DNA of 9,866 bases, from positions 1 to 9,866 of the forward strand of contig JAMDAP010000188.1 in assembly GCA_023484675.1 (NCBI GenBank). Direction: 5' to 3'. Origin of the DNA: Bacillota bacterium (GTDB taxonomy: Bacteria > Bacillota_E > Symbiobacteriia > JAMDAP01). Shown here piece after piece: positions 374 to 9,866 of this stretch (its first letter is position 1; the number at the start of each line of letters is the position of its first letter). The notes beneath the pieces were generated by a model. The model had not been told where the DNA came from. It did not search any database and saw only the letters and a program-made list of their open reading frames with translations. A program made the position numbers and the translations under genes.

Positions 374-1255
374 TCAGTCGCAGATGCCGGCAGCGCGGAA
401 CAGGTGCCAGGTGAAGGCCAACTTGAGCAAGGCGAGGTAATTCTCCACTTTCTTCTCCCAGCGGACGAGGAGGCGGCGGAAGCGGTTGATCCAGGAGTGG
501 GTGCGCTCGACGACCCAGCGGCGTGCCCGGTAGCCTAGGGATGTCGCGCTTGGCGACGGCCTCCTCGCCACGCGTCCGCAGGTGAGGGGTGTAGTTTCGT
601 TCCTGCAGGATCGGGGGGACACGCGGATAGTCGTAACCCTTGTCCACCAGAGGTGGTGCGGGTCCTGGGGGGTCGGCAGCGGTCGTGGGACGGGGATGCT
701 GTCGAGCGTCTTGGCGAGCAGGAGGTGGTCGTTGACGTTGGCCCCGGCGACCGCCACGCTGAGGGGCTGCCCGCGACCGTCGCTGAGCAGGGAGCGTTTG
801 GTGCCCGACTTACCGCGGTCGGTGGGATTGGGACCCGTAGCCTCGCCGCCCAATGGCGCCTTGGTCATGGTGCCGTCGGCGGACTGCCAACCCCAGGCGA
901 TACCGTGGCGGGCGTCGTAGTGCAATAGGCCGGCGGCATGGAACCGGTCAAACACGCCGGCGCGAGTCCACTCCTGGAAGCGCGCGTGGACGGTGCTGGC
1001 GGGGCCAAATGGCCGCGGCAGGGCCTTCCACTGACAGCCGGTGCGCAGCGGATAGAAAATGCCGCTCAGGATCGTGCGGTCATCCCGGCGCGGTCGTCCA
1101 CCGCGTGGATGCGGCGGCGCCGGTGGCAACAGGGGCGCGATCTTCTCCCACACGGACCGGGGCAGCAGCCACGACCCCGGGGCGACCGTGACCCAGGGAT
1201 CGGCGGCGGAGTGGGTGAGGTGGATCGCGGGTGGGTTGCGCGTCATCGGTGTCAT
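374..1255 (-). pseudogene. IS5-family transposase, two compensating frameshifts
   Basis: DDE transposase with the IS5-family N-terminal helical region (SVWEKIAPLLPP, GCQWKALPRPFG, HARFQEW), first-aspartate region (SADGTMTKAPLGGEATGPNP) and C-terminal catalytic block (RARRWVVERTHSWINRFRR, RWEKKVENYLALL). The second-aspartate block (DKGYDYPRVPPILQERNYTP) is present but in another frame. A base appears lost near 650, where CTCTGGTGGACAAG stands where family members would have a CTC-TGC-GTG-GAC-AAG type sequence, and one appears gained near 534 (CCTAGGCTACCGG), which restores the frame. Between these points about 38 codons are out of frame, including the second catalytic aspartate. The ATG at 1255 overlaps the TGA of the DUF4338 frame as ATGA, so translation would be coupled. 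With both shifts repaired, the length (about 293 codons) suits the family. Sequencing error is an alternative to real decay. Confidence 0.85.
469..493 (-). repeat. 25-bp segment repeated inverted at window start
   Basis: The reverse complement of 469-493 equals positions 1-25 exactly; identity stops at 26 (G against T). Within the transposase it encodes the WINRFRRL part of the conserved HSWINRFRRLLVRWEK motif. Confidence 0.9.
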
Positions 1256-1665
1256 TCCGTCTCCGTCAAGATTTGACGGAAGTGACGATCCAGGGGGTAA
1301 AGCCAGATGTCCTTGACGGGCTTGTCCGCGCGGTGGGTGCGATCCAATTTGCCGCGGCCCTGGGTTTGCCCGACGCAAACCCAGTTCGCGGCCCGGTAGC
1401 TGGTCCCCGTGAACCGCGGGCGCTCGACGAAGCTTTCCAGGAGCACCGGCCGATAGCCATAGCGGGCCTGCCAGTCGGCGCCGATCCGCCGTGCCGCCAA
1501 CGCCAGAACGCTGGAAGCCAGGTAGCGCGCCCGGACCCAGGGCAGGACGAGGAAGCGCGCATTGTTGACGACCAAATGCAGATGGGCTTGGCGCTGCGCG
1601 GCAGTCCAACCGATGAACCGGTCGCGCGGTGCGACTTTCCAGGCGGCGGCGCCGAAGCCGAGCAC
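1252..1665 (-). CDS. DUF4338 (DruA-like) protein, N-terminally truncated
   Basis: The 137 codons read GFGAAAWKVAPRDRFIGW, LHLVVNNARFLVLPWV, LASSVLALAARRI, ADWQARYGYRPVLLESFVE and TSYRAANWVCVGQTQGRGK, then VKDIWLYPL. This is the conserved core of DUF4338, the domain of the DruA protein of the Druantia anti-phage system. The domain is also common as a passenger in transposons, and its biochemical role is unknown to me. The family usually has another 100 or more residues in front of the LGFGAAAWK motif. Here an in-frame TAA at 1699-1701 cuts that region off, and only a GTG at 1665 is left as a start, with no good ribosome binding site. The gene is probably a truncated remnant, although the core is uninterrupted. 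Its stop overlaps the transposase ATG (ATGA), which ties both to one transposon transcript. Confidence 0.75.
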   Translation of the reverse strand: MLGFGAAAWKVAPRDRFIGWTAAQRQAHLHLVVNNARFLVLPWVRARYLASSVLALAARRIGADWQARYGYRPVLLESFVERPRFTGTSYRAANWVCVGQTQGRGKLDRTHRADKPVKDIWLYPLDRHFRQILTETE

Positions 1666-4043: not shown

Positions 4044-4292
4044 CTAATGTTGGACCAACTTGCTTACCATCTTGGCCAGGTGCTGCTGATCCTGGCTGTC
4101 GCCCGAATCCCACAACTCCTTGAGGAGCCGCTGTTCCCTGTTGCTTGGGTCGACGCTGTTGGCCAGGTAGCTGCCCATCTTAGTGGCTACCTTGGTGATC
4201 TCTTGATCGGAGGCGCCAGCGGCCTTGGCCATACCGACACCCTCCGCCAACGTGTTCTTCCAATTGTCAAAGGAATCCGTGGTCTGCAACAA
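4044..4292 (-). CDS. DUF3243 (YmfJ-like) protein
   Basis: About 82 residues. DNWKNTLAEGVGMAKAAGAS, then ITKVATKMGSYLANSVDPSNREQRLLKELWDSG, then QQHLAKMVSKLVQ. This follows Bacillus YmfJ (DUF3243) along its length: WKxxLxxxxxxAxxxGxS, a GDYLAxxVDPxNxEERLLKELWDxA core, and a helical end. It is a small, soluble, helical protein whose function is unknown. A GTG at 4298 is in frame but lies inside the ribosome binding site (AGGGAGG ends at 4298), so it cannot be the start for that site. TTG at 4292 (5 bp spacing) or TTG at 4289 (8 bp) fits better. The gene precedes the lipoprotein gene on the same strand. Confidence 0.85.
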   Translation of the reverse strand: MLQTTDSFDNWKNTLAEGVGMAKAAGASDQEITKVATKMGSYLANSVDPSNREQRLLKELWDSGDSQDQQHLAKMVSKLVQH

Positions 4293-4497
4293 AAACACCT
4301 CCCTTTCCGCCCGGCCCGCGCCGCGCGTTCATGTGGATAGATCCGCAGCCCTAGTCTAACCACCGCCCCTGCTGTCATACGTTGGCGACTAATTTGCCCA
4401 CAGCCGACAAACTTCTTGGAAGGAACTGGGACTCTGCACCCGGAAGGCAAGACTGTCTCCAACACGGCAGTGCAGACAGCAGGGGGAGATCGCCCGC

Positions 4498-5328
4498 ATG
4501 ACAATAGCAACGCGCCGGCTCGTTCAGACTCTAGCCTCTTTGGCCCTCCTCGCCGGCATGCTGCCGGCCGCGGCCCTGGCCACCGCACCGCTCGCCTCCG
4601 AGCTGGGGGTCCCTGACCGCAAGGTTCTGTGGCGCGACGGCACGCCTGTCACCCTGGTGGCGCGAGGGCCCAACCTTGGGCAGTGCCTGGCCAGCGATCC
4701 GGACTCTCTCGTCTTTGCCCTTGGCTACCTGGCCGGGGTTCGCGATCCAAAGGCACTGAAACGCGCCTGGCAACGGGCGCAGGGTGCCGACCTTCTGGCG
4801 CGCCTGAGCGCTCCTGACCTGGCGGAGGTCAGGCAGGTCCTCGCCTCCTGGCCGAAGGAGCGGGTAAAGCTTCTTGACGGGTTGGCCGAGGGTCTCAACC
4901 TGGCAGCACGTTCTATGGGAGTGGAGGAGCGCTGGAGCCGTGAGAAAGTCGCCGCGCTTGCCCTGCAGGAACCAGTGCTGGCTGCGGCAGGCGACTGGGA
5001 GGAGGTGCCGGCCCAGGCCCGTCTGACCGTGCGCCTGGGTGCCGCGGCCAAGGACGCCGCCTGGGGGCCGGCGCTCACCAGCTGGGCCGCCGCCCTCTTC
5101 CCCTGGATCGCCCTGGACGGGTCCCAGGGCGGGGCGGTGGAAGACGAGCAAAGCGCGGCCTTTTTTTCTTGGGTGGAAGTAAACCCTGCGGGTGGAAATC
5201 CTCTGCTATGGGTGGACGAGGCGGGCGGCTTGGGGCTGGTGTATCGCGCCCCACCTCTGCCAACGCGCCTGGAAGCCCTGGGCAAGCGGCTGGACCGGTC
5301 CCTTTTCGAGGTCAGCCCATCGTCCTAG
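4498..5328 (+). CDS. secreted protein of unknown function, faintly penicillin-acylase-like
   Basis: A 276-residue protein with a Sec signal peptide: TRR, a hydrophobic core (about 8-22) and an ALA site at 26-28. The mature part is Ala/Leu-rich with a single cysteine (GQCLASD). I do not recognise a clear family. Three segments, in order, recall penicillin acylases: RDGTPVTLVAR (compare RDxxGVPHIxA), DSLVFALGYLAG through LLARLS, and GLAEGLNL (about 69-135), then FFSWVEVNPAGGNPLLWVDEAGG from 222. That last part resembles the start of the beta chain (SNxWVV...GKPLLAxDPH), but the nucleophilic serine position is Phe222. At 276 residues it is far shorter than a full acylase of about 750. The ATG has AGGGGGAG about nine bases upstream. 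It is a single gene, divergent from the DUF3243 gene; an inverted repeat overlaps its stop. Confidence 0.8.
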   Translation: MTIATRRLVQTLASLALLAGMLPAAALATAPLASELGVPDRKVLWRDGTPVTLVARGPNLGQCLASDPDSLVFALGYLAGVRDPKALKRAWQRAQGADLLARLSAPDLAEVRQVLASWPKERVKLLDGLAEGLNLAARSMGVEERWSREKVAALALQEPVLAAAGDWEEVPAQARLTVRLGAAAKDAAWGPALTSWAAALFPWIALDGSQGGAVEDEQSAAFFSWVEVNPAGGNPLLWVDEAGGLGLVYRAPPLPTRLEALGKRLDRSLFEVSPSS

Positions 5329-5355
5329 TCTAGGACCACAGTCCTGAAATTTTTG
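5322..5355 (+). terminator. weak terminator, three overlapping hairpin arms
   Basis: GTCCTA (5322-5327), TAGGAC (5331-5336) and GTCCT (5341-5345) let the middle arm pair with either neighbour. The downstream stem (AGGAC-CACA-GTCCT) is followed by GAAATTTTT. With only five pairs and a gap before the T-run, termination would be inefficient. The stop codon TAG lies inside the upstream hairpin. Confidence 0.35.
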
Positions 5356-5364
5356 AAAAACCTC

Positions 5365-5381
5365 TTGTGTGTTCGACACAA
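5365..5381. repeat. 6-bp-arm inverted repeat in AT-rich leader
   Basis: TTGTGT, spacer GTTCG, ACACAA. A direct repeat TTCGACA (5372-5378 and 5382-5388) overlaps it. The stretch 5345-5460 is clearly more AT-rich than its surroundings and should contain the promoter for the riboswitch transcript, but I cannot fix -35 and -10 boxes. The repeat is a candidate protein-binding site. Confidence 0.4.
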
Positions 5382-5454
5382 TTCGACAGAACAATCGGAA
5401 ATGGACATGTTATCCTCTACTCACATAGTCTTCAATTGCATAGAGTTGGAAGTC

Positions 5455-5546
5455 CGATAAAGACAACCCTTCCCGAAAGGGATGGGGCGTAAAGCAGTGG
5501 GTCTAAAGGCGTAAGCCCAAGACCGCCACGCTGCCGAAGACGATCG
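5455..5546 (+). ncRNA. c-di-GMP-I (GEMM)-like riboswitch aptamer
   Basis: The conserved GEMM elements appear in order. AAAGACAACCC starts the aptamer. A hairpin capped by a GNRA loop follows (CCC GAAA GGG, loop 5475-5478). Then comes the joining sequence GGGGCGTAAAGC (5484-5495; family GGGACGCAAAGC), and the second helix begins with GGGTCTAA (5499-5506) and returns through AGACC (5520-5524). The 3' end CCACGCTGCC matches the family's GCCGGGUUGCC only roughly. The closing P1 helix (5462-5466 with 5531-5535) is weaker than usual, with two mismatches. Aptamers of this class bind cyclic di-GMP, and some variants bind cGAMP; the ligand should be tested. A terminator follows at 5563-5603 and the DUF5317 gene at 5639, so it most likely controls transcription of that operon. 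Confidence 0.75.
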
Positions 5547-5550
5547 CTGG

Positions 5551-5567
5551 GGAACCCTCAGGGGTCC
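5551..5567 (+). promoter_or_regulatory. possible antiterminator hairpin
   Basis: GGAACCC, loop TCA, GGGGTCC: six pairs and one mismatch. Its 3' arm covers 5563-5567, the first bases of the terminator stem, so the two structures cannot form together. This is the geometry expected for a riboswitch expression platform, although how the aptamer chooses between them is not visible. Confidence 0.45.
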
Positions 5568-5603
5568 GGCGCTTGGCCTTCGGCCGATGCACCGGGCCTT
5601 TTT
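5563..5603 (+). terminator. riboswitch-controlled intrinsic terminator
   Basis: An outer stem GGTCCGG/CCGGGCC (one G-U pair) and an inner stem GGCC-TTC-GGCC are followed immediately by TTTTT (5599-5603). It lies after the aptamer and 35 bp before the DUF5317 start, inside the leader, so it marks conditional rather than end-of-gene termination. Confidence 0.8.
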
Positions 5604-5638
5604 GCATTGGGCGCCCGGACCAGGAGGAGGTTCATTCC

Positions 5639-6175
5639 ATGCTGGCCGACATGATCCTGCTGAGTGTGCTGGTGGCCCTGATTCGCGGTGGACGCCCCAG
5701 CGACAGCCTCAAGGTGCGTTACCCCTGGATGATCTTCGCAGCCTTGGGCCTGCAGCTGGTGGCGGTGGTTGCGCCACGCGATATTAGCCCGCTGCTGATT
5801 CTGGCGTCTTACGCCGTACTGTTGACGGGACTGGCCTTCAATCTCGAGAAGCAGAGCCTACGCCTGATCTTCGTCGGCGTGTTGCTCAACGCCGTGGTCA
5901 TCGGACTTAACGCCGGACACATGCCGGTGTCGGTGGCGGCGGCCAACGGGCTCGGGTTCAACACTCAGTCACTGGTAGCCGGCGCCGACTACAAGCGCGT
6001 GGCGATGAGCGACAGCACTCTGTTTAACTTCCTTGGCGATGTTATCCCGGTGCCATTTCCCCTGCCCAGGGTGGTCAGCATTGGGGACGTTCTCATCGCT
6101 CTGGGCGCGTTCCTATTGATTCAGGAGTTTATGTCCAAGCCGGTCACCTTTCGGGCCAGAAGGCTGAGCCTCTAG
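5639..6175 (+). CDS. DUF5317 membrane protein
   Basis: A 178-residue integral membrane protein. Hydrophobic segments run at about 3-15, 30-46, 53-69, 77-92 and 149-163. Between the last two lies a conserved-looking loop: LNAGHMPVS, then STLFNFLGDVIPVPFPLPRVVSIGDVLI. This pattern (NAGxMPVS...LxFLGDVIPxP...VxSIGDVLI) is what I associate with DUF5317, a family without known function found in spore-forming Bacillota. The ATG at 5639 follows AGGAGGAGG by 8 bases; a longer frame from 5573 would start inside the terminator and is not credible. It is the first gene behind the c-di-GMP-like riboswitch. A 27-codon ORF and the HD-GYP/GGDEF gene follow on the same strand, which suggests the protein takes part in, or responds to, c-di-GMP signalling at the membrane. 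Confidence 0.85.
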   Translation: MLADMILLSVLVALIRGGRPSDSLKVRYPWMIFAALGLQLVAVVAPRDISPLLILASYAVLLTGLAFNLEKQSLRLIFVGVLLNAVVIGLNAGHMPVSVAAANGLGFNTQSLVAGADYKRVAMSDSTLFNFLGDVIPVPFPLPRVVSIGDVLIALGAFLLIQEFMSKPVTFRARRLSL

Positions 6176-6212
6176 CGAAGAATCGAGAGTCAGGATTAAA
6201 GGAGGTGTTCTC

Positions 6213-6296
6213 ATGCGTAAGTACAGCTACTACTTCTACGCTGCTCTTCTCGTCCTCGCTCTTGTCTCTGCCTCTGTCGCTGACTGGCTCTGGTAG
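6213..6296 (+). CDS. 27-residue membrane miniprotein
   Basis: The sequence is MRKYSYYFYAALLVLALVS followed by ASVADWLW. It has a basic, Tyr-rich start, one hydrophobic helix (about 10-22) and a Trp-rich end. The ATG is preceded by AAAGGAGGTG (6198-6207) with a 5-base gap, one of the strongest ribosome binding sites in the window, which argues that it is translated. It sits 37 bp after the DUF5317 gene and 76 bp before the TTG start of the HD-GYP/GGDEF protein, in the same apparent operon. I do not recognise a family. Its size and single helix suit a regulator or subunit of a neighbouring membrane protein. It could instead be a leader peptide for the downstream gene. Confidence 0.65.
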   Translation: MRKYSYYFYAALLVLALVSASVADWLW

Positions 6297-6372
6297 CACC
6301 GAACCTCCCGAGTTTGCTCAGTCCTTCTGGTCCGTTCACTTCTCCCTTCCTAATTTCTGAGGGGGCGGCACT

Positions 6373-8211
6373 TTGACCAGGCGAGCCAACCTCTATATTG
6401 CGGTTTTGACGGGACTGGCCATCTTCGTCATCGTGCGTGGCGGGGTCGATTGGACGCTTTTCCTTCTGGTTTTGCCGGTCCTGCTGCAGCGCGTCTTCGG
6501 GCAGTATTACAGCGCCCTCAAGCGCAACGCCGAGTCCAGTCGCCTGCACGAGGTCCAGGACTCCATGCTGGCGGCCCTGGTCGCCGCCCTCGACGCCCGG
6601 GATCCCTACACCCGCGGCCACTCGGCCCGCGTCTCCCACTACACGCAGCTGTTGGCCCAGGAGATAGGGCTCGGCCCGAAGCGTCGCGACGAGCTCAAAT
6701 ACGCCAGCCTTCTGCACGACATTGGCAAGATAGGCATCCCCGATGCGACGCTTCGCAAGGAGGGGCCGCTGTCTCCCGCCGAACGGGCCTTGATGATGGA
6801 GCACCCGGTGCGGGGCATCCAGCTTCTGGCCCACGTCAACCTGCCGGACAGCGTTGTTCCAGCCATTAAGTACCACCACGAATGGTACAACGGCGGCGGC
6901 TACCCGGAGGGGCTCAAGAGCGACCTCATTCCCCTGGAAGCCCGCATTATTGCCGTGGCTGACGCCTTTGACGCCATGACCTCGGACCGGCCCTACCGCA
7001 AAGGCATGCCCTGGATGGAAGCCATCAATCGGGTGAACCAGGGGCGCGGCGTGCAGTTCGACCCGGTGGTGGCTGATGCCCTGGTCCACATTGTTGAGCG
7101 CACCCCCGATCTTCCTCATGAGGCCGCTTTGTTGAAAAGCGACTTCAGCGATGTTGACAGTCTGCTGAGTGAGGTACCGCAGGAAGGGTACGGCTTTGAT
7201 CGCACGGGCCGCATCCTCCCTGTCCATTCCAAGGAGTTGAAGATTCTCTACCAGCTCTCCCTGGAGCGCCGCTCGCTGCTGGACACGTCTCGTGCCCTGC
7301 ACCGGGTGCTGGAGATCCTCTACGACACCATCGGGCCGCATGCCTACTACATCGTGCTCTCTGACAAGCCCGCTGGTGATATGGTGGTGAGCTCCGCCAC
7401 CGGCTGCAACCGGGACGTCATCGGCCACCGCTGGCCCGTGAGCACCGGCCTCTGCGGCTGGGTGTTGCGCCACGGCCAACCCCTGGTGGCTGCGGATGTG
7501 GAGAAGGATGAACGATACGTTCGCATTAACCAGACGACCCGCTCCGAATTGGCGGTGCCGCTGGTCACCGAGAACGAGGTCATCGGTGTGCTGAACCTGG
7601 AGTCGTCCCGGGTCGGCGCCTTCAGCGACGATGATGTCTACCTGCTTACCGCCGTGGCCCGGCAGGTGGCCGACGCCATTGAGGTGGCACGGGCGCACGA
7701 GCGCATGTCCTACGCCGCCACCCACGACGGGCTCACCGGCGCGCTCAACCGCGCCACCTTTTATCGCCTGTTGGACGAGGAGCTGCAAACAGCCCGGCAC
7801 GAATCCTACCCTGTGGCTGTGGCCCTCTTCGACATCAATAGTCTAAAGCTGATTAATGACACGTATGGCCATCTGGCTGGGGATCAGGCCGTGCGCGAGT
7901 TCGGCCTGCACTTAAAGGAGCAGGTCCGATCCACCGACCTGGTGGCCAGGTATGGCGGCGACGAGTTCGCTGTGGTCATGCCGCATACCACCAGGGAGGA
8001 AGCCCACGACAGGATGGCCGAGGTTGCCGCCGACACGGGTCAGGCCATCTCCGTGGGAAGCGGCTTCATCCCGCTGCCCACCGCCTCCTGGGGTGTGGCC
8101 GCCTACCCCGAGGAGGGAGAGATCGCGGAGGATCTGGTGGCCCGTGCGGACGAGGGAATGTATGAGGAGAAGAAAGGCAAACCGGCGCCTCACCTGTACG
8201 TAATCAAGTAG
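6373..8211 (+). CDS. membrane HD-GYP / GAF / GGDEF c-di-GMP protein
   Basis: A 612-residue protein. Two short membrane segments lie near the N-terminus (about 7-21 and 26-40). An HD-GYP phosphodiesterase domain follows (about 65-225) with HDIGK at 115-119, HHE at 168-170 and NGGGYPEGL with GYP at 176-178. A GAF sensor domain spans about 300-440. The C-terminal diguanylate cyclase domain (about 450-608) has HDGLTGALNR, FDINSLKLINDTYGH, GGDEF at 528-532 and the inhibitory RSTD site at 519-522, five residues before GGDEF. Both catalytic domains therefore look active: one hydrolyses c-di-GMP, the other makes it from two GTP. Position 489 is Asn where Asp is more usual. The start is TTG at 6373, seven bases after GAGGGGG; no ATG suits the membrane segment. 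It is the last gene of the riboswitch-led operon, followed by a strong terminator. Confidence 0.93.
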   Translation: MTRRANLYIAVLTGLAIFVIVRGGVDWTLFLLVLPVLLQRVFGQYYSALKRNAESSRLHEVQDSMLAALVAALDARDPYTRGHSARVSHYTQLLAQEIGLGPKRRDELKYASLLHDIGKIGIPDATLRKEGPLSPAERALMMEHPVRGIQLLAHVNLPDSVVPAIKYHHEWYNGGGYPEGLKSDLIPLEARIIAVADAFDAMTSDRPYRKGMPWMEAINRVNQGRGVQFDPVVADALVHIVERTPDLPHEAALLKSDFSDVDSLLSEVPQEGYGFDRTGRILPVHSKELKILYQLSLERRSLLDTSRALHRVLEILYDTIGPHAYYIVLSDKPAGDMVVSSATGCNRDVIGHRWPVSTGLCGWVLRHGQPLVAADVEKDERYVRINQTTRSELAVPLVTENEVIGVLNLESSRVGAFSDDDVYLLTAVARQVADAIEVARAHERMSYAATHDGLTGALNRATFYRLLDEELQTARHESYPVAVALFDINSLKLINDTYGHLAGDQAVREFGLHLKEQVRSTDLVARYGGDEFAVVMPHTTREEAHDRMAEVAADTGQAISVGSGFIPLPTASWGVAAYPEEGEIAEDLVARADEGMYEEKKGKPAPHLYVIK

Positions 8212-8249
8212 AAAAGACGCTCGTCGGAAGAGCAGGTTGAAGGATAGGA

Positions 8250-8295
8250 GGCGGCGCAGCCTCAGGCCATGGGCCGGGGCCGCGTCGCCCTTTTG
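8250..8295 (+). terminator. intrinsic terminator after HD-GYP/GGDEF gene
   Basis: A 16-base stem (8250-8265 with 8274-8289) has two A-C mismatches and two G-U pairs around an 8-base loop, then CTTTTG. It lies 38 bp after the stop codon and separates the c-di-GMP operon from the cotE-like gene. Confidence 0.72.
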
Positions 8296-8319
8296 TTGTG
8301 CCCGCGGGGACACCCGGCG

Positions 8320-8328
8320 CATAGGATA
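8320..8328 (+). promoter_or_regulatory. possible sporulation-sigma -10 box
   Basis: CATAGGATA fits the sigma-K -10 pattern CATANNNTA and loosely that of sigma-E. It lies 53 bp before the cotE-like start and beyond the preceding terminator, where the promoter is expected. I cannot see a convincing -35 box at the right distance, so this is weak. Confidence 0.35.
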
Positions 8329-8381
8329 CCCTGGCAACACAGTTCCGGGCTTAACCCGGAGAAAGGGAGGGCAAAAGACAT

Positions 8382-8948
8382 ATGGCGGGTCGGTTCGTGC
8401 AAGTGCTCCTGCGGGCCGTGGTAGGTAATGCCCGCAAGCGCATCAGAACCACCCAGGAGATCCAGCTCGGCAGCCGTGCGCGCTCTCTGCTAGGCTGCCA
8501 CGTGTCCCGTCCTTCGCTCAGCGCCTCCTGGAACAATGGCAAGATGGAGGTCACGCTGGACTTTGACGTGGACGCCTGGTTTACATCCGACGACACCGGT
8601 CAGACCCTGCTGCACCGTGAGCCAATCACGGTGACGGAGGCCGTGGGCGTCGACCTCATCGGCCCAATCCTCGCCGATCCGGCTGCCTTCGCCAACCTGG
8701 TGGGCACCCTGCGCTGCGCCGACAGCCACATCACGACGGCCAAGGGGGCGGTTGCGTCCACCTTGACAGCCAAGGTGGTTGGTCTGGTCTCCACGGAAGT
8801 GGTAGCCACGACTCGGCTGATGGTGCAGGCCTTCCCGGTGCCCGAGGGCGCGGACAAGGAGGAAAAGGAGCTGGCCTGTGAGGTTGAGCCGGAAGAGCTG
8901 GAGGATGACACCTGGGAAGACGAGGAGTTGCTGGAAGCGGACGTTTAG
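8382..8948 (+). CDS. cotE: CotE-family outer spore coat morphogenetic protein
   Basis: A 188-residue protein that resembles Bacillus CotE (181 residues) in layout. The N-terminal AVVGNARKRIRTTQEI matches CotE AVVAKGRKFTQCTNTI, and SLLGCHVSRP matches SILGGWIINH. KMEVTLDFDVDAWFTSDD matches VEIEGYYDINVWYSYADN, followed by VTEAVGVDLIGP and a valine-rich strand region. The Asp/Glu-rich tail (EVEPEELEDDTWEDEELLEADV, split here only by charge) matches the acidic CotE end. CotE assembles around the forespore and recruits outer coat proteins; it is made in the mother cell. ATG 8382 follows GGGAGG by 11 bases, a little long. A terminator lies on each side, so it is a single-gene transcript. The amidoligase gene next door fits a coat function. 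Confidence is moderate to high from pattern comparison. Confidence 0.8.
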   Translation: MAGRFVQVLLRAVVGNARKRIRTTQEIQLGSRARSLLGCHVSRPSLSASWNNGKMEVTLDFDVDAWFTSDDTGQTLLHREPITVTEAVGVDLIGPILADPAAFANLVGTLRCADSHITTAKGAVASTLTAKVVGLVSTEVVATTRLMVQAFPVPEGADKEEKELACEVEPEELEDDTWEDEELLEADV

Positions 8949-9060: not shown

Positions 9061-9866
9061 GTGGGTGCAGCCGAAGTGAAGGCAACGGCTTCGGGGCGGC
9101 AAGGTCTGGCGAGTGAAACGCCCGTTCGGCCGGCGGCGCATTTGGCCTTGAGCAACCGGCCTGGGCACCATTGGCTTGTTGCCAACCTTTCCGAGGGCTG
9201 GGCAATCTGGCGGGATGGCCAAATCGCCGCTGCGTCCACCGAGTCCCCCGAGGTGCTGGTGCGCTGGGGCAGCTTGGAGGGACCCGAGGGCGGGCGACTG
9301 ACGCTGAACCCGGTGGTGCGTCTACGAGTGGCGCAAGAGCCTCTGGAAGTTCAGTCAGTCTGGCAGGCCGCCAGGGTTCGGACCTTGCCGGCGGAGAGCG
9401 CGGCCCAGGTGCGCCGGCGGTTTCGCGTGGACGTGTTCAACGGGCAGGTGCTGGCCATGCATCTCCGAGGCAGGGGCGGAGGACTGCGCCCCCTGGCCTG
9501 GGGATCCAGCCGGGAGGGGCTTCTGGTGGCCTGGCATGCCATGCGGGCTCTGCATGCGTTGCGCCTGGACTTCGGGGCTGTCTGGATCGGGGTGCAGGGT
9601 CTGCGCACCTACGCCTTGGACGTGGAGCCCTCGCCACGCCTCACCCCGGCCCTTGCCGCCACCTACGTCGCTGCGCTCGAGGGTCTGGACTCGGACCTGC
9701 TATGGTGGCCCGGAGATCCACCGGCCACGCAGCCGGACGTGGTGCTGGGGGCGGATCCGGAATTTGTCCTGCGCGACCAGGCCAGTGGCGAGATGATCCC
9801 GGCGTCCGACTACTTTTCCCGCTACGGTGTGGTGGGCTGCGACCGTCAACTCTTTGACCGGGCCAG
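9061..9866 (+). CDS. amidoligase (COOH-NH2 ligase type 2) domain protein, partial
   Basis: An open frame runs from 9061 past the right edge (268 codons seen). The N-terminal region (about 1-225) is strand-rich and begins near LALSNRPGHHWLVANLSEGW; I know no family for it. From residue 230 come GADPEFVLRDQASGEMIPASDYF and YGVVGCDRQLFDR. The GADPEF opening and the later G-x-GCD motif are typical of the putative amidoligase (COOH-NH2 ligase type 2) family. That family is predicted, by its glutamine-synthetase-like fold, to form amide or isopeptide bonds using ATP. In spore formers such genes often lie near coat-associated ATP-grasp proteins (YheC/YheD). GTG 9061 has GAGGTG nine bases upstream; GTG 9049 is the only earlier start before the stop at 9034-9036. 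The preceding terminator gives it its own transcript. Confidence 0.8.
   Translation, partial: MGAAEVKATASGRQGLASETPVRPAAHLALSNRPGHHWLVANLSEGWAIWRDGQIAAASTESPEVLVRWGSLEGPEGGRLTLNPVVRLRVAQEPLEVQSVWQAARVRTLPAESAAQVRRRFRVDVFNGQVLAMHLRGRGGGLRPLAWGSSREGLLVAWHAMRALHALRLDFGAVWIGVQGLRTYALDVEPSPRLTPALAATYVAALEGLDSDLLWWPGDPPATQPDVVLGADPEFVLRDQASGEMIPASDYFSRYGVVGCDRQLFDRA

What the first reader, a model, noticed from the sequence alone, without database searches (positions are those of the whole stretch)
5455..8211. A c-di-GMP-sensing leader in front of its own c-di-GMP enzyme: possible closed feedback loop with two unknown membrane proteins
Seen: a GEMM-like aptamer, a terminator, DUF5317, a 27-codon ORF and a membrane HD-GYP/GAF/GGDEF protein, all on one strand with no other terminator before 8250. 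Known: GEMM-I RNAs bind c-di-GMP and commonly control motility, adhesion and c-di-GMP enzymes. Inferred: the messenger tunes synthesis of the enzyme that makes and destroys it, and the DUF5317 and miniprotein genes may belong to the same membrane complex.
Basis: partly seen in the sequence, partly recalled or inferred. Interest (0 to 1): 0.75.

Follow-up and report, generated by a model that had tools for sequence, protein, structure and literature searches.

The report
Riboswitch-led c-di-GMP operon with microprotein
A bacterial RNA switch for the signal molecule c-di-GMP sits in front of an operon that encodes a c-di-GMP enzyme, and the tiny 27-residue membrane protein encoded just before that enzyme appears to belong to a widespread, overlooked family.

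Summary
The leader is real: 5452-5538(+) is Rfam RF01051 (61.3 bits, E 2.4e-10) with the ligand residues of c-di-GMP sensors. Its expression platform has Cd1-type OFF topology: the strand with the ligand-pairing C pairs with the terminator's 5' arm (0.99 in transcripts ending at 5585; 0.86 in relative L001), then a strong terminator (5562-5604) forms. So c-di-GMP most likely shuts the operon DUF5317 - 27-aa membrane microprotein - HD-GYP/GAF/GGDEF. A review says c-di-GMP riboswitches rarely control c-di-GMP enzymes; 4 of 20 operons of this kind examined have one. The larger result is the microprotein. Candidates occur in 18 of 19 DUF5317 loci followed by an HD-GYP gene, 0 of 60 followed by secA and 1 of 38 others. 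In a mostly fresh set, 19 of 28 MASE9/HD-GYP genes have one directly 5'; among HD-GYP genes classed soluble 1 of 13, itself a misclassified membrane protein. DUF5317 lies within 3.5 kb of a MASE9 gene in 59 of 95 places. Ligand binding, switching, one transcript, microprotein expression and any complex are untested.

The parts
5353..5429 (+). two weak sigma-70-type promoter-like sites (5353-5382, 5402-5429) upstream of the aptamer
   Evidence: consensus scan, 9 of 12 matches each; not evidence of function
5452..5538 (+). c-di-GMP-I (GEMM-I) aptamer; G5462 = selectivity residue, A5463-U5490 = first P2 pair, C5534 = ligand-pairing C
   Evidence: RF01051 61.3 bits, E 2.4e-10; letters checked; mapping of residues from the model's structure line and PMC6274999 passages
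5533..5539 (+). aptamer 3' strand GCCGAAG, predicted to pair with the terminator 5' arm (CTTCGGC 5578-5584) in the antiterminator
   Evidence: pairing probability 0.99 at transcript end 5585
5562..5604 (+). intrinsic terminator of the riboswitch: hairpin 5562-5599 and T tract 5600-5604
   Evidence: folds
5639..6175 (+). DUF5317 gene (178 aa membrane protein)
   Evidence: PF17248 113.7 bits; AF2 model pLDDT 84.5, pTM 0.77
6213..6296 (+). 27-aa single-pass membrane microprotein gene, Shine-Dalgarno at 6198-6207
   Evidence: 9 of 11 changed codons synonymous against L001; like ORFs in 18 of 19 DUF5317/HD-GYP loci
6373..8211 (+). membrane HD-GYP/GAF/GGDEF enzyme (612 aa); HDIGK 6715-6729, HHEWYNGGGYP 6874-6906, I-site RSTD 7927-7938, GGDEF 7954-7968
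   Evidence: Pfam, motif positions; most of the MASE9 domain of its relatives is missing
8243..8294 (+). terminator at the end of the operon
   Evidence: fold; scanner hit 8276-8291

Best explanation
A class-I c-di-GMP riboswitch of transcriptional OFF type controls a three-gene operon: DUF5317, a 27-aa single-pass membrane microprotein, and a membrane-anchored HD-GYP/GAF/GGDEF enzyme. At low c-di-GMP the aptamer's 3' strand, which carries the ligand-pairing C5534, pairs with the 5' arm of the terminator and RNA polymerase reads through. At high c-di-GMP the aptamer is held closed, the terminator at 5562-5604 forms and the operon is shut. c-di-GMP thus limits synthesis of the enzyme that makes or destroys it; the enzyme also keeps an I-site for product inhibition. 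DUF5317, the microprotein and the HD-GYP protein are inferred to act as one membrane signalling unit, because their genes travel together. Shown by computation: aptamer, terminator, competing strand, intact motifs, gene order, conservation of the microprotein. Inferred: ligand binding, sign of the switch, one transcript, the complex. I lean (about 55:45) to the enzyme acting mainly as a phosphodiesterase, because HD-GYP is constant in the family and GGDEF optional; the loop would then be self-reinforcing (c-di-GMP represses its own destroyer) rather than homeostatic.
For: RF01051 61.3 bits; G at the selectivity residue and C at the pairing residue. Antiterminator probability 0.99 (window) and 0.86 (L001), lost when the terminator's 3' arm is made; the same arrangement is described for the Cd1 OFF switch (PMC9262584, sections 3 part 1, 12 and 20 seen). 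Same leader and gene order in L001. Class-I aptamers directly upstream of the same kind of operon in G082b and G262b. HD-GYP and GGDEF motifs and I-site intact. Neighbourhood statistics.
Against: No binding or transcription data. At full length the terminator is favoured whatever the aptamer does, so the switch must be kinetic; the platform alone folds no better than shuffles (z -0.55). The first P2 pair is A-U where 57 of 60 sampled GEMMs have GGC at positions 11-13, so affinity could be altered. The platforms of L131 and L295 did not show a clear OFF arrangement. 16 of 19 fetched DUF5317/HD-GYP loci have no riboswitch directly upstream.
Confidence: 0.65

Rival explanations
1. The switch is ON: ligand binding prevents termination, as in the Geobacter pilM cGAMP riboswitch, where the terminator uses the aptamer's own 3' strand.
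For: Both signs occur in this aptamer class (PMC9262584 introduction). In L295 a terminator-like fold uses sequence next to the aptamer's 3' end, which could be ON-like.
Against: In the window the terminator (5562-5604) and the aptamer (5452-5538) do not share sequence and can coexist, while the antiterminator consumes the aptamer's 3' strand.
Confidence: 0.2
2. The enzyme acts mainly as a diguanylate cyclase, so that the OFF switch gives plain negative feedback that holds c-di-GMP steady.
For: GGDEF motif, NDTYGHLAGD and I-site RSTD are intact.
Against: HD-GYP is the constant domain: the enzymes of L089, L224 and L304 have HD but no GGDEF by Pfam. The HD-GYP motifs of the window enzyme are intact too.
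Confidence: 0.4
3. The 27-codon ORF is not a partner subunit but a cis-acting leader peptide, for example one whose translation or membrane targeting tunes the downstream enzyme gene; its charged start, hydrophobic core and small residues resemble a signal sequence.
For: It lies directly 5' of the enzyme gene in both gene orders, DUF5317 first and enzyme first. Arrest peptides upstream of protein-localisation genes are known (PMC12992588, abstract in listing only).
Against: Two tandem copies in L271 and near-identity of protein over changed codons suit a product acting in trans; I saw no known arrest motif (by eye, recalled).
Confidence: 0.25
4. The aptamer senses another cyclic dinucleotide such as 3',3'-cGAMP.
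For: GEMM-I variants sense cGAMP (PMC7266159 passages); changes low in P2 can alter selectivity (PMC9262584 introduction) and the window has an unusual A-U pair there.
Against: The selectivity residue is G5462, not A; the neighbouring GGDEF has the canonical Asp (mapping recalled).
Confidence: 0.1

Closest known systems
Cd1 c-di-GMP-I riboswitch of the Clostridioides difficile flgB operon (PMC9262584, PMC6366702)
   Same: Aptamer class; OFF topology in which terminator and aptamer coexist and the antiterminator takes the ligand-pairing C.
   Different: Controls flagellar genes, not a c-di-GMP enzyme operon; unusual A-U first P2 pair here.
GEMM-Ib cGAMP riboswitches with Hypr GGDEF enzymes of Geobacter (PMC6456294, PMC8835794)
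   Same: Same aptamer fold, linked to GGDEF signalling.
   Different: G rather than A at the selectivity residue; canonical Asp rather than the Hypr Ser (mapping recalled); there the switch does not precede its own cyclase gene, as far as the passages seen say.
MASE9-type membrane HD-GYP phosphodiesterases (PF20972 + PF13487)
   Same: Full-length relatives P0045-P0048 carry MASE9, HD-GYP, GAF, GGDEF; microprotein ORF directly 5'.
   Different: The window enzyme has lost most of MASE9, keeping about two TM segments.
Small single-pass subunits of membrane complexes such as KdpF or CydX (recalled)
   Same: About 25-37 aa, one TM, encoded beside the large partner.
   Different: Different partner; no sequence relation tested.

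Membership tests
c-di-GMP-I riboswitch (RF01051) | covariance score above the gathering threshold, full-length match | tested here: met
   61.3 bits against 35, model 1-87 of 87
c-di-GMP-I riboswitch (RF01051) | G at the selectivity residue (last of J1/2) and C that pairs with the ligand | tested here: met
   G5462 and C5534; mapping via PMC6274999 passages and PMC9262584
c-di-GMP-I riboswitch (RF01051) | binds c-di-GMP and changes expression | not testable with these tools
   needs in-line probing and transcription assays
GEMM-Ib (cGAMP) riboswitch | A at the selectivity residue | tested here: not met
   G5462
HD-GYP phosphodiesterase | HD domain with HDxGK and HHExxNGxGYP motifs | tested here: met
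   HD_5 135.1 bits; HDIGK and HHEWYNGGGYP
GGDEF diguanylate cyclase | GGDEF domain with intact active-site motif | tested here: met
   PF00990 133.4 bits; GGDEF and I-site RSTD; activity not tested
Hypr GGDEF | Ser in place of the substrate-binding Asp | tested here: not met
   NDTYGHLAGD keeps Asp; that this Asp is the residue of PMC6456294 is recalled, not aligned here
MASE9 (PF20972) | profile match in the window enzyme | tested here: not met
   no match at E 0.1, while relative P0045 scores 25.6 bits (cut-off 24.3)
DUF5317 (PF17248) | profile match | tested here: met
   113.7 bits, cut-off 25
described small-protein families | match of the 27-aa protein to Pfam, NCBIfam or PHROGs | tested here: not met
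   0 families in each; 27 aa is hard for profile search, so this is weak evidence

The most novel reading that the evidence does not exclude
The 27-aa ORF belongs to an undescribed, widespread family of single-pass membrane microproteins (24-36 aa) that are near-constant partners of MASE9-type HD-GYP c-di-GMP phosphodiesterases. Together with DUF5317 they form a membrane signalling complex, often encoded next to secA. In some lineages, this one included, the unit has been put under direct c-di-GMP control by a riboswitch.
Probability: 0.45. Interest if true: 0.8.

Novelty: new variant of a known kind. Interest (0 to 1): 0.66.

Why it matters
A review says c-di-GMP riboswitches rarely control c-di-GMP enzymes, so an enzyme operon under such a switch is a clean test of whether the loop damps or latches the messenger. 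More generally, DUF5317 (no paper in the held library) and an overlooked microprotein gain a concrete partner, the MASE9/HD-GYP phosphodiesterase, which makes the open question of what these membrane sensors detect, and with what subunits, directly testable.

Tried and rejected
cGAMP specificity was checked and set aside: the selectivity residue is G, not A. A first thought that the adjacent A5463 was that residue was dropped once J1/2 and P2 were matched to the model's structure line. The WT1-AS_4 match at 8201-8336 (24.4 bits, gathering 60) is chance.

Weaknesses: the microprotein filter was set after the first examples and changed; the earlier version missed two ORFs that overlap the DUF5317 stop and gave candidates, later dropped, in G029 and G488. 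Loci are related to one another and 40 of the 117 came from a search with an alignment made from the HD-GYP type, so the Fisher values are only indicative. In the clade L287, L291, L293, L295, L302 the ten pairs show 2-5 synonymous and 3-6 replacement codons, no clear purifying signal; L280/L289 differ at 28 of 34 codons by replacement in an unaligned comparison. One search read minus-strand loci in the wrong orientation; one search replaces it. Pairing DUF5317 and enzyme hits by equal contig length is inference.
Full report
WHAT IS THERE. On the + strand the window holds a leader, three genes and a terminator. 5452-5538 is a full-length c-di-GMP-I aptamer (RF01051, 61.3 bits, gathering 35, E 2.4e-10). 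A strong hairpin with a T tract follows (5562-5604). DUF5317 is 5639-6175 (PF17248, 113.7 bits). A 27-codon ORF with a strong Shine-Dalgarno is 6213-6296. The enzyme, 6373-8211, carries HD_5, GAF and GGDEF. A terminator folds at about 8243-8294. The + strand promoter-like sites nearest the operon lie upstream of the aptamer. No genome is held for the window. Its nearest DUF5317 hits are mostly metagenomic proteins, one from a MAG named Symbiobacteriia, and L001, an uncultured Firmicutes MAG (81% identity).

THE APTAMER. The model's structure line starts P2 at position 12, so the last J1/2 residue, position 11, is the selectivity residue (A14 in the cGAMP riboswitch, where J1/2 is A9-A14 and P2 starts at C15: PMC6274999, passages seen). 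It is G5462 here, as in c-di-GMP sensors; the ligand-pairing C is C5534. One oddity: the first P2 pair is A5463-U5490. Of 60 GEMM hits from relatives, 57 carry GGC at positions 11-13; L194, the leader of the G001 orthologue, carries GAC like the window; L187 carries AGC and L188 CGC. The introduction of PMC9262584 (section 3, part 1 seen) says that changes low in P2 can alter affinity and selectivity, so affinity is an open point.

THE SWITCH. In transcripts ending at 5585 the strand 5533-5539 (GCCGAAG, containing C5534) pairs with the terminator's 5' arm with mean probability 0.99, falling to 0.01 at 5600 once the terminator's 3' arm exists. In L001 the same strand reaches 0.86 at 1622 and 0.00 at 1637. 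Holding that strand open, as a crude proxy for bound ligand, lets the terminator begin earlier (0.18 against 0.06 at 5591). This is the Cd1 arrangement: terminator and aptamer coexist and the antiterminator takes the ligand-pairing C (PMC9262584, sections 3 part 1, 12 and 20 seen). Hence the predicted OFF switch. At full length the terminator wins either way, so the mechanism must be kinetic. Folding is only moderately better than shuffles for the whole leader (z -2.18) and not for the platform alone (z -0.55). The leaders of L131 and L295 gave no clear OFF arrangement, so the sign may differ between lineages.

THE ENZYME. HDIGK, HHEWYNGGGYP, GGDEF and an I-site RSTD five residues before GGDEF are intact. 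The Asp of GHLAGD argues against a Hypr enzyme (PMC6456294 passages; mapping recalled). The four closest relatives, P0045-P0048, are 783-785 aa and are listed with MASE9 (P0045 confirmed). The window protein is 612 aa and lacks about 170 residues of that membrane domain. This looks like loss of the sensor domain in this lineage; an assembly fault is not excluded.

HOW RARE IS THE LOOP. [quoted passage not shown] Of 60 GEMM loci from relatives, with 174-6270 nt of downstream sequence each, 2 had an HD-GYP or GGDEF motif downstream on the same strand, L194 (the orthologue) and L151; 2 (L146, L158) had one on the opposite strand, so in general there is no enrichment (a crude motif search). Yet of the 19 DUF5317/HD-GYP loci below, 3 have a class-I aptamer directly upstream of DUF5317: G001:C41 (L076, RF01051 43.7 bits), G082b (L131, RF03167 63.9 bits) and G262b (L295, RF03167 73.1 bits). 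With the window that is 4 of 20. L151 (G045:C84) reads aptamer, microprotein candidate, HD-GYP-like membrane protein, without DUF5317.

THE MICROPROTEIN. Window and L001 differ in 11 of 27 codons and 9 of the changes are synonymous; L280/L290 in 13, 12 synonymous; the tandem copies in L271 in 13, 10 synonymous. The chance of so few replacements without selection is 6e-5, 2e-7 and 6e-5, using the window's codons for the neutral expectation. The clade L287-L302 shows no such clear excess. With one filter (20-40 aa, SD, K/R near the start, hydrophobic core, within -75 to +450 of the DUF5317 stop) a candidate is found in 18 of 19 DUF5317 loci followed by an HD gene, 0 of 60 followed by secA, and 1 of 38 others (G098, whose contig ends 140 nt on); 117 loci in all, three with under 300 nt downstream. 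The one miss, G003b, has no room between the genes. Background: 9 of 416 ends of ORFs of at least 250 aa gave a candidate. Two of these are the same microproteins met again; three (L081, L086, L140) lie directly 5' of a MASE9 gene upstream of DUF5317 (these MASE9 genes are in the list); two (L238, L242) lie 5' of a similar-sized membrane ORF beside DUF5317 that was not in that list; two remain unexplained.

A MOSTLY FRESH SET. The best-scoring MASE9 loci were then taken without regard to the microprotein. Of 28 with an HD motif, 19 have a candidate directly 5', most sharing one pattern, e.g. MARLMRAILALLALVLAGGAHFQWG; 2 further loci without a recognised HD motif have none. Some of these regions had been fetched before for their DUF5317 gene, but only G013 (L324 = L086) had been seen to carry the ORF. 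Of the 30 HD_5 loci, 5 of 6 membrane types have one (two of them are loci of the MASE9 set), 1 of 13 classed soluble (L369 = G042, in truth a membrane protein with an inserted segment), 1 of 1 without a recognised HD motif, and 0 of 10 whose 5' end was cut off. So the ORF follows the membrane HD-GYP gene rather than DUF5317. Nine of the 28 show none by this filter.

DUF5317. Its commonest downstream neighbour is secA (60 of 117 loci by motif; Pfam-confirmed for one, L077). Of 95 DUF5317 places in 84 of 121 genomes, 59 have a MASE9 match on the same strand within 3.5 kb, 56 upstream and 3 downstream. Among 14 control genomes both families ring in the same two, Thermus composti and Thermotoga maritima. 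Nine of the 19 other DUF5317 homologues at 56% identity or more sit on contigs of exactly the length of contigs with enzyme homologues (inference). A fair model (pLDDT 84.5) has no clear PDB relative.

MECHANISM AND STATUS. Shown by computation: aptamer, terminator, competing strand, intact motifs, gene order, selection on the microprotein in three comparisons, neighbourhood counts. Inferred: c-di-GMP binding, OFF sign, one transcript, the membrane unit. The sign of the loop depends on which activity dominates; HD-GYP is constant and GGDEF optional among the relatives scanned, which tips me slightly to a phosphodiesterase and a self-reinforcing loop. As a riboswitch this is a member of a known class in an unusual place. 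The window microprotein matches nothing in Pfam, NCBIfam or PHROGs, and my paper searches, which cover open-licence papers only and were read as listings, showed no description of the family.

Noticed in passing
L187 (GEMM at G001:C367 4648-4721): This aptamer of the relative G001 carries A at the selectivity position (AGC at 11-13), the pattern of cGAMP-sensing GEMM-Ib RNAs; G001 has 12 GEMM-I matches in all.
   Followed up: no
L271 1571-1642 and 1739-1810: Two tandem, near-identical microprotein ORFs between DUF5317 and the HD/GGDEF gene; 10 of 13 codon differences are synonymous.
   Followed up: partly
DUF5317 loci of relatives, e.g. L077: In 60 of 117 loci the gene after DUF5317 reads as secA by motif; the combination membrane HD-GYP, DUF5317, secA is common.
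   Followed up: partly
window 6373-6510: The enzyme lacks about 170 residues of the MASE9 membrane domain that its four closest relatives have.
   Followed up: partly
window 8318-8382 and L001 about 4815-4888: The stretch before the CotE-like gene is almost identical in window and L001 (alignment): a possible conserved promoter or regulatory site.
   Followed up: no
window 374-1609 (-): Overlapping minus-strand reading frames that look like an IS transposase (by eye; no family search made).
   Followed up: no
window 4044-4298 (-), 8382-8948 (+), 9061-9864 (+): DUF3243 (102 bits), a CotE-type spore coat protein (46.7 bits) and the start of a COOH-NH2 ligase (37.4 bits) flank the operon, pointing to a spore-forming Bacillota.
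   Followed up: no
L079 2071-2153 (+): A c-di-GMP-II riboswitch (62.8 bits) lies beyond the 3' end of the DUF5317 - HD-GYP pair of G003, on the opposite strand.
   Followed up: no
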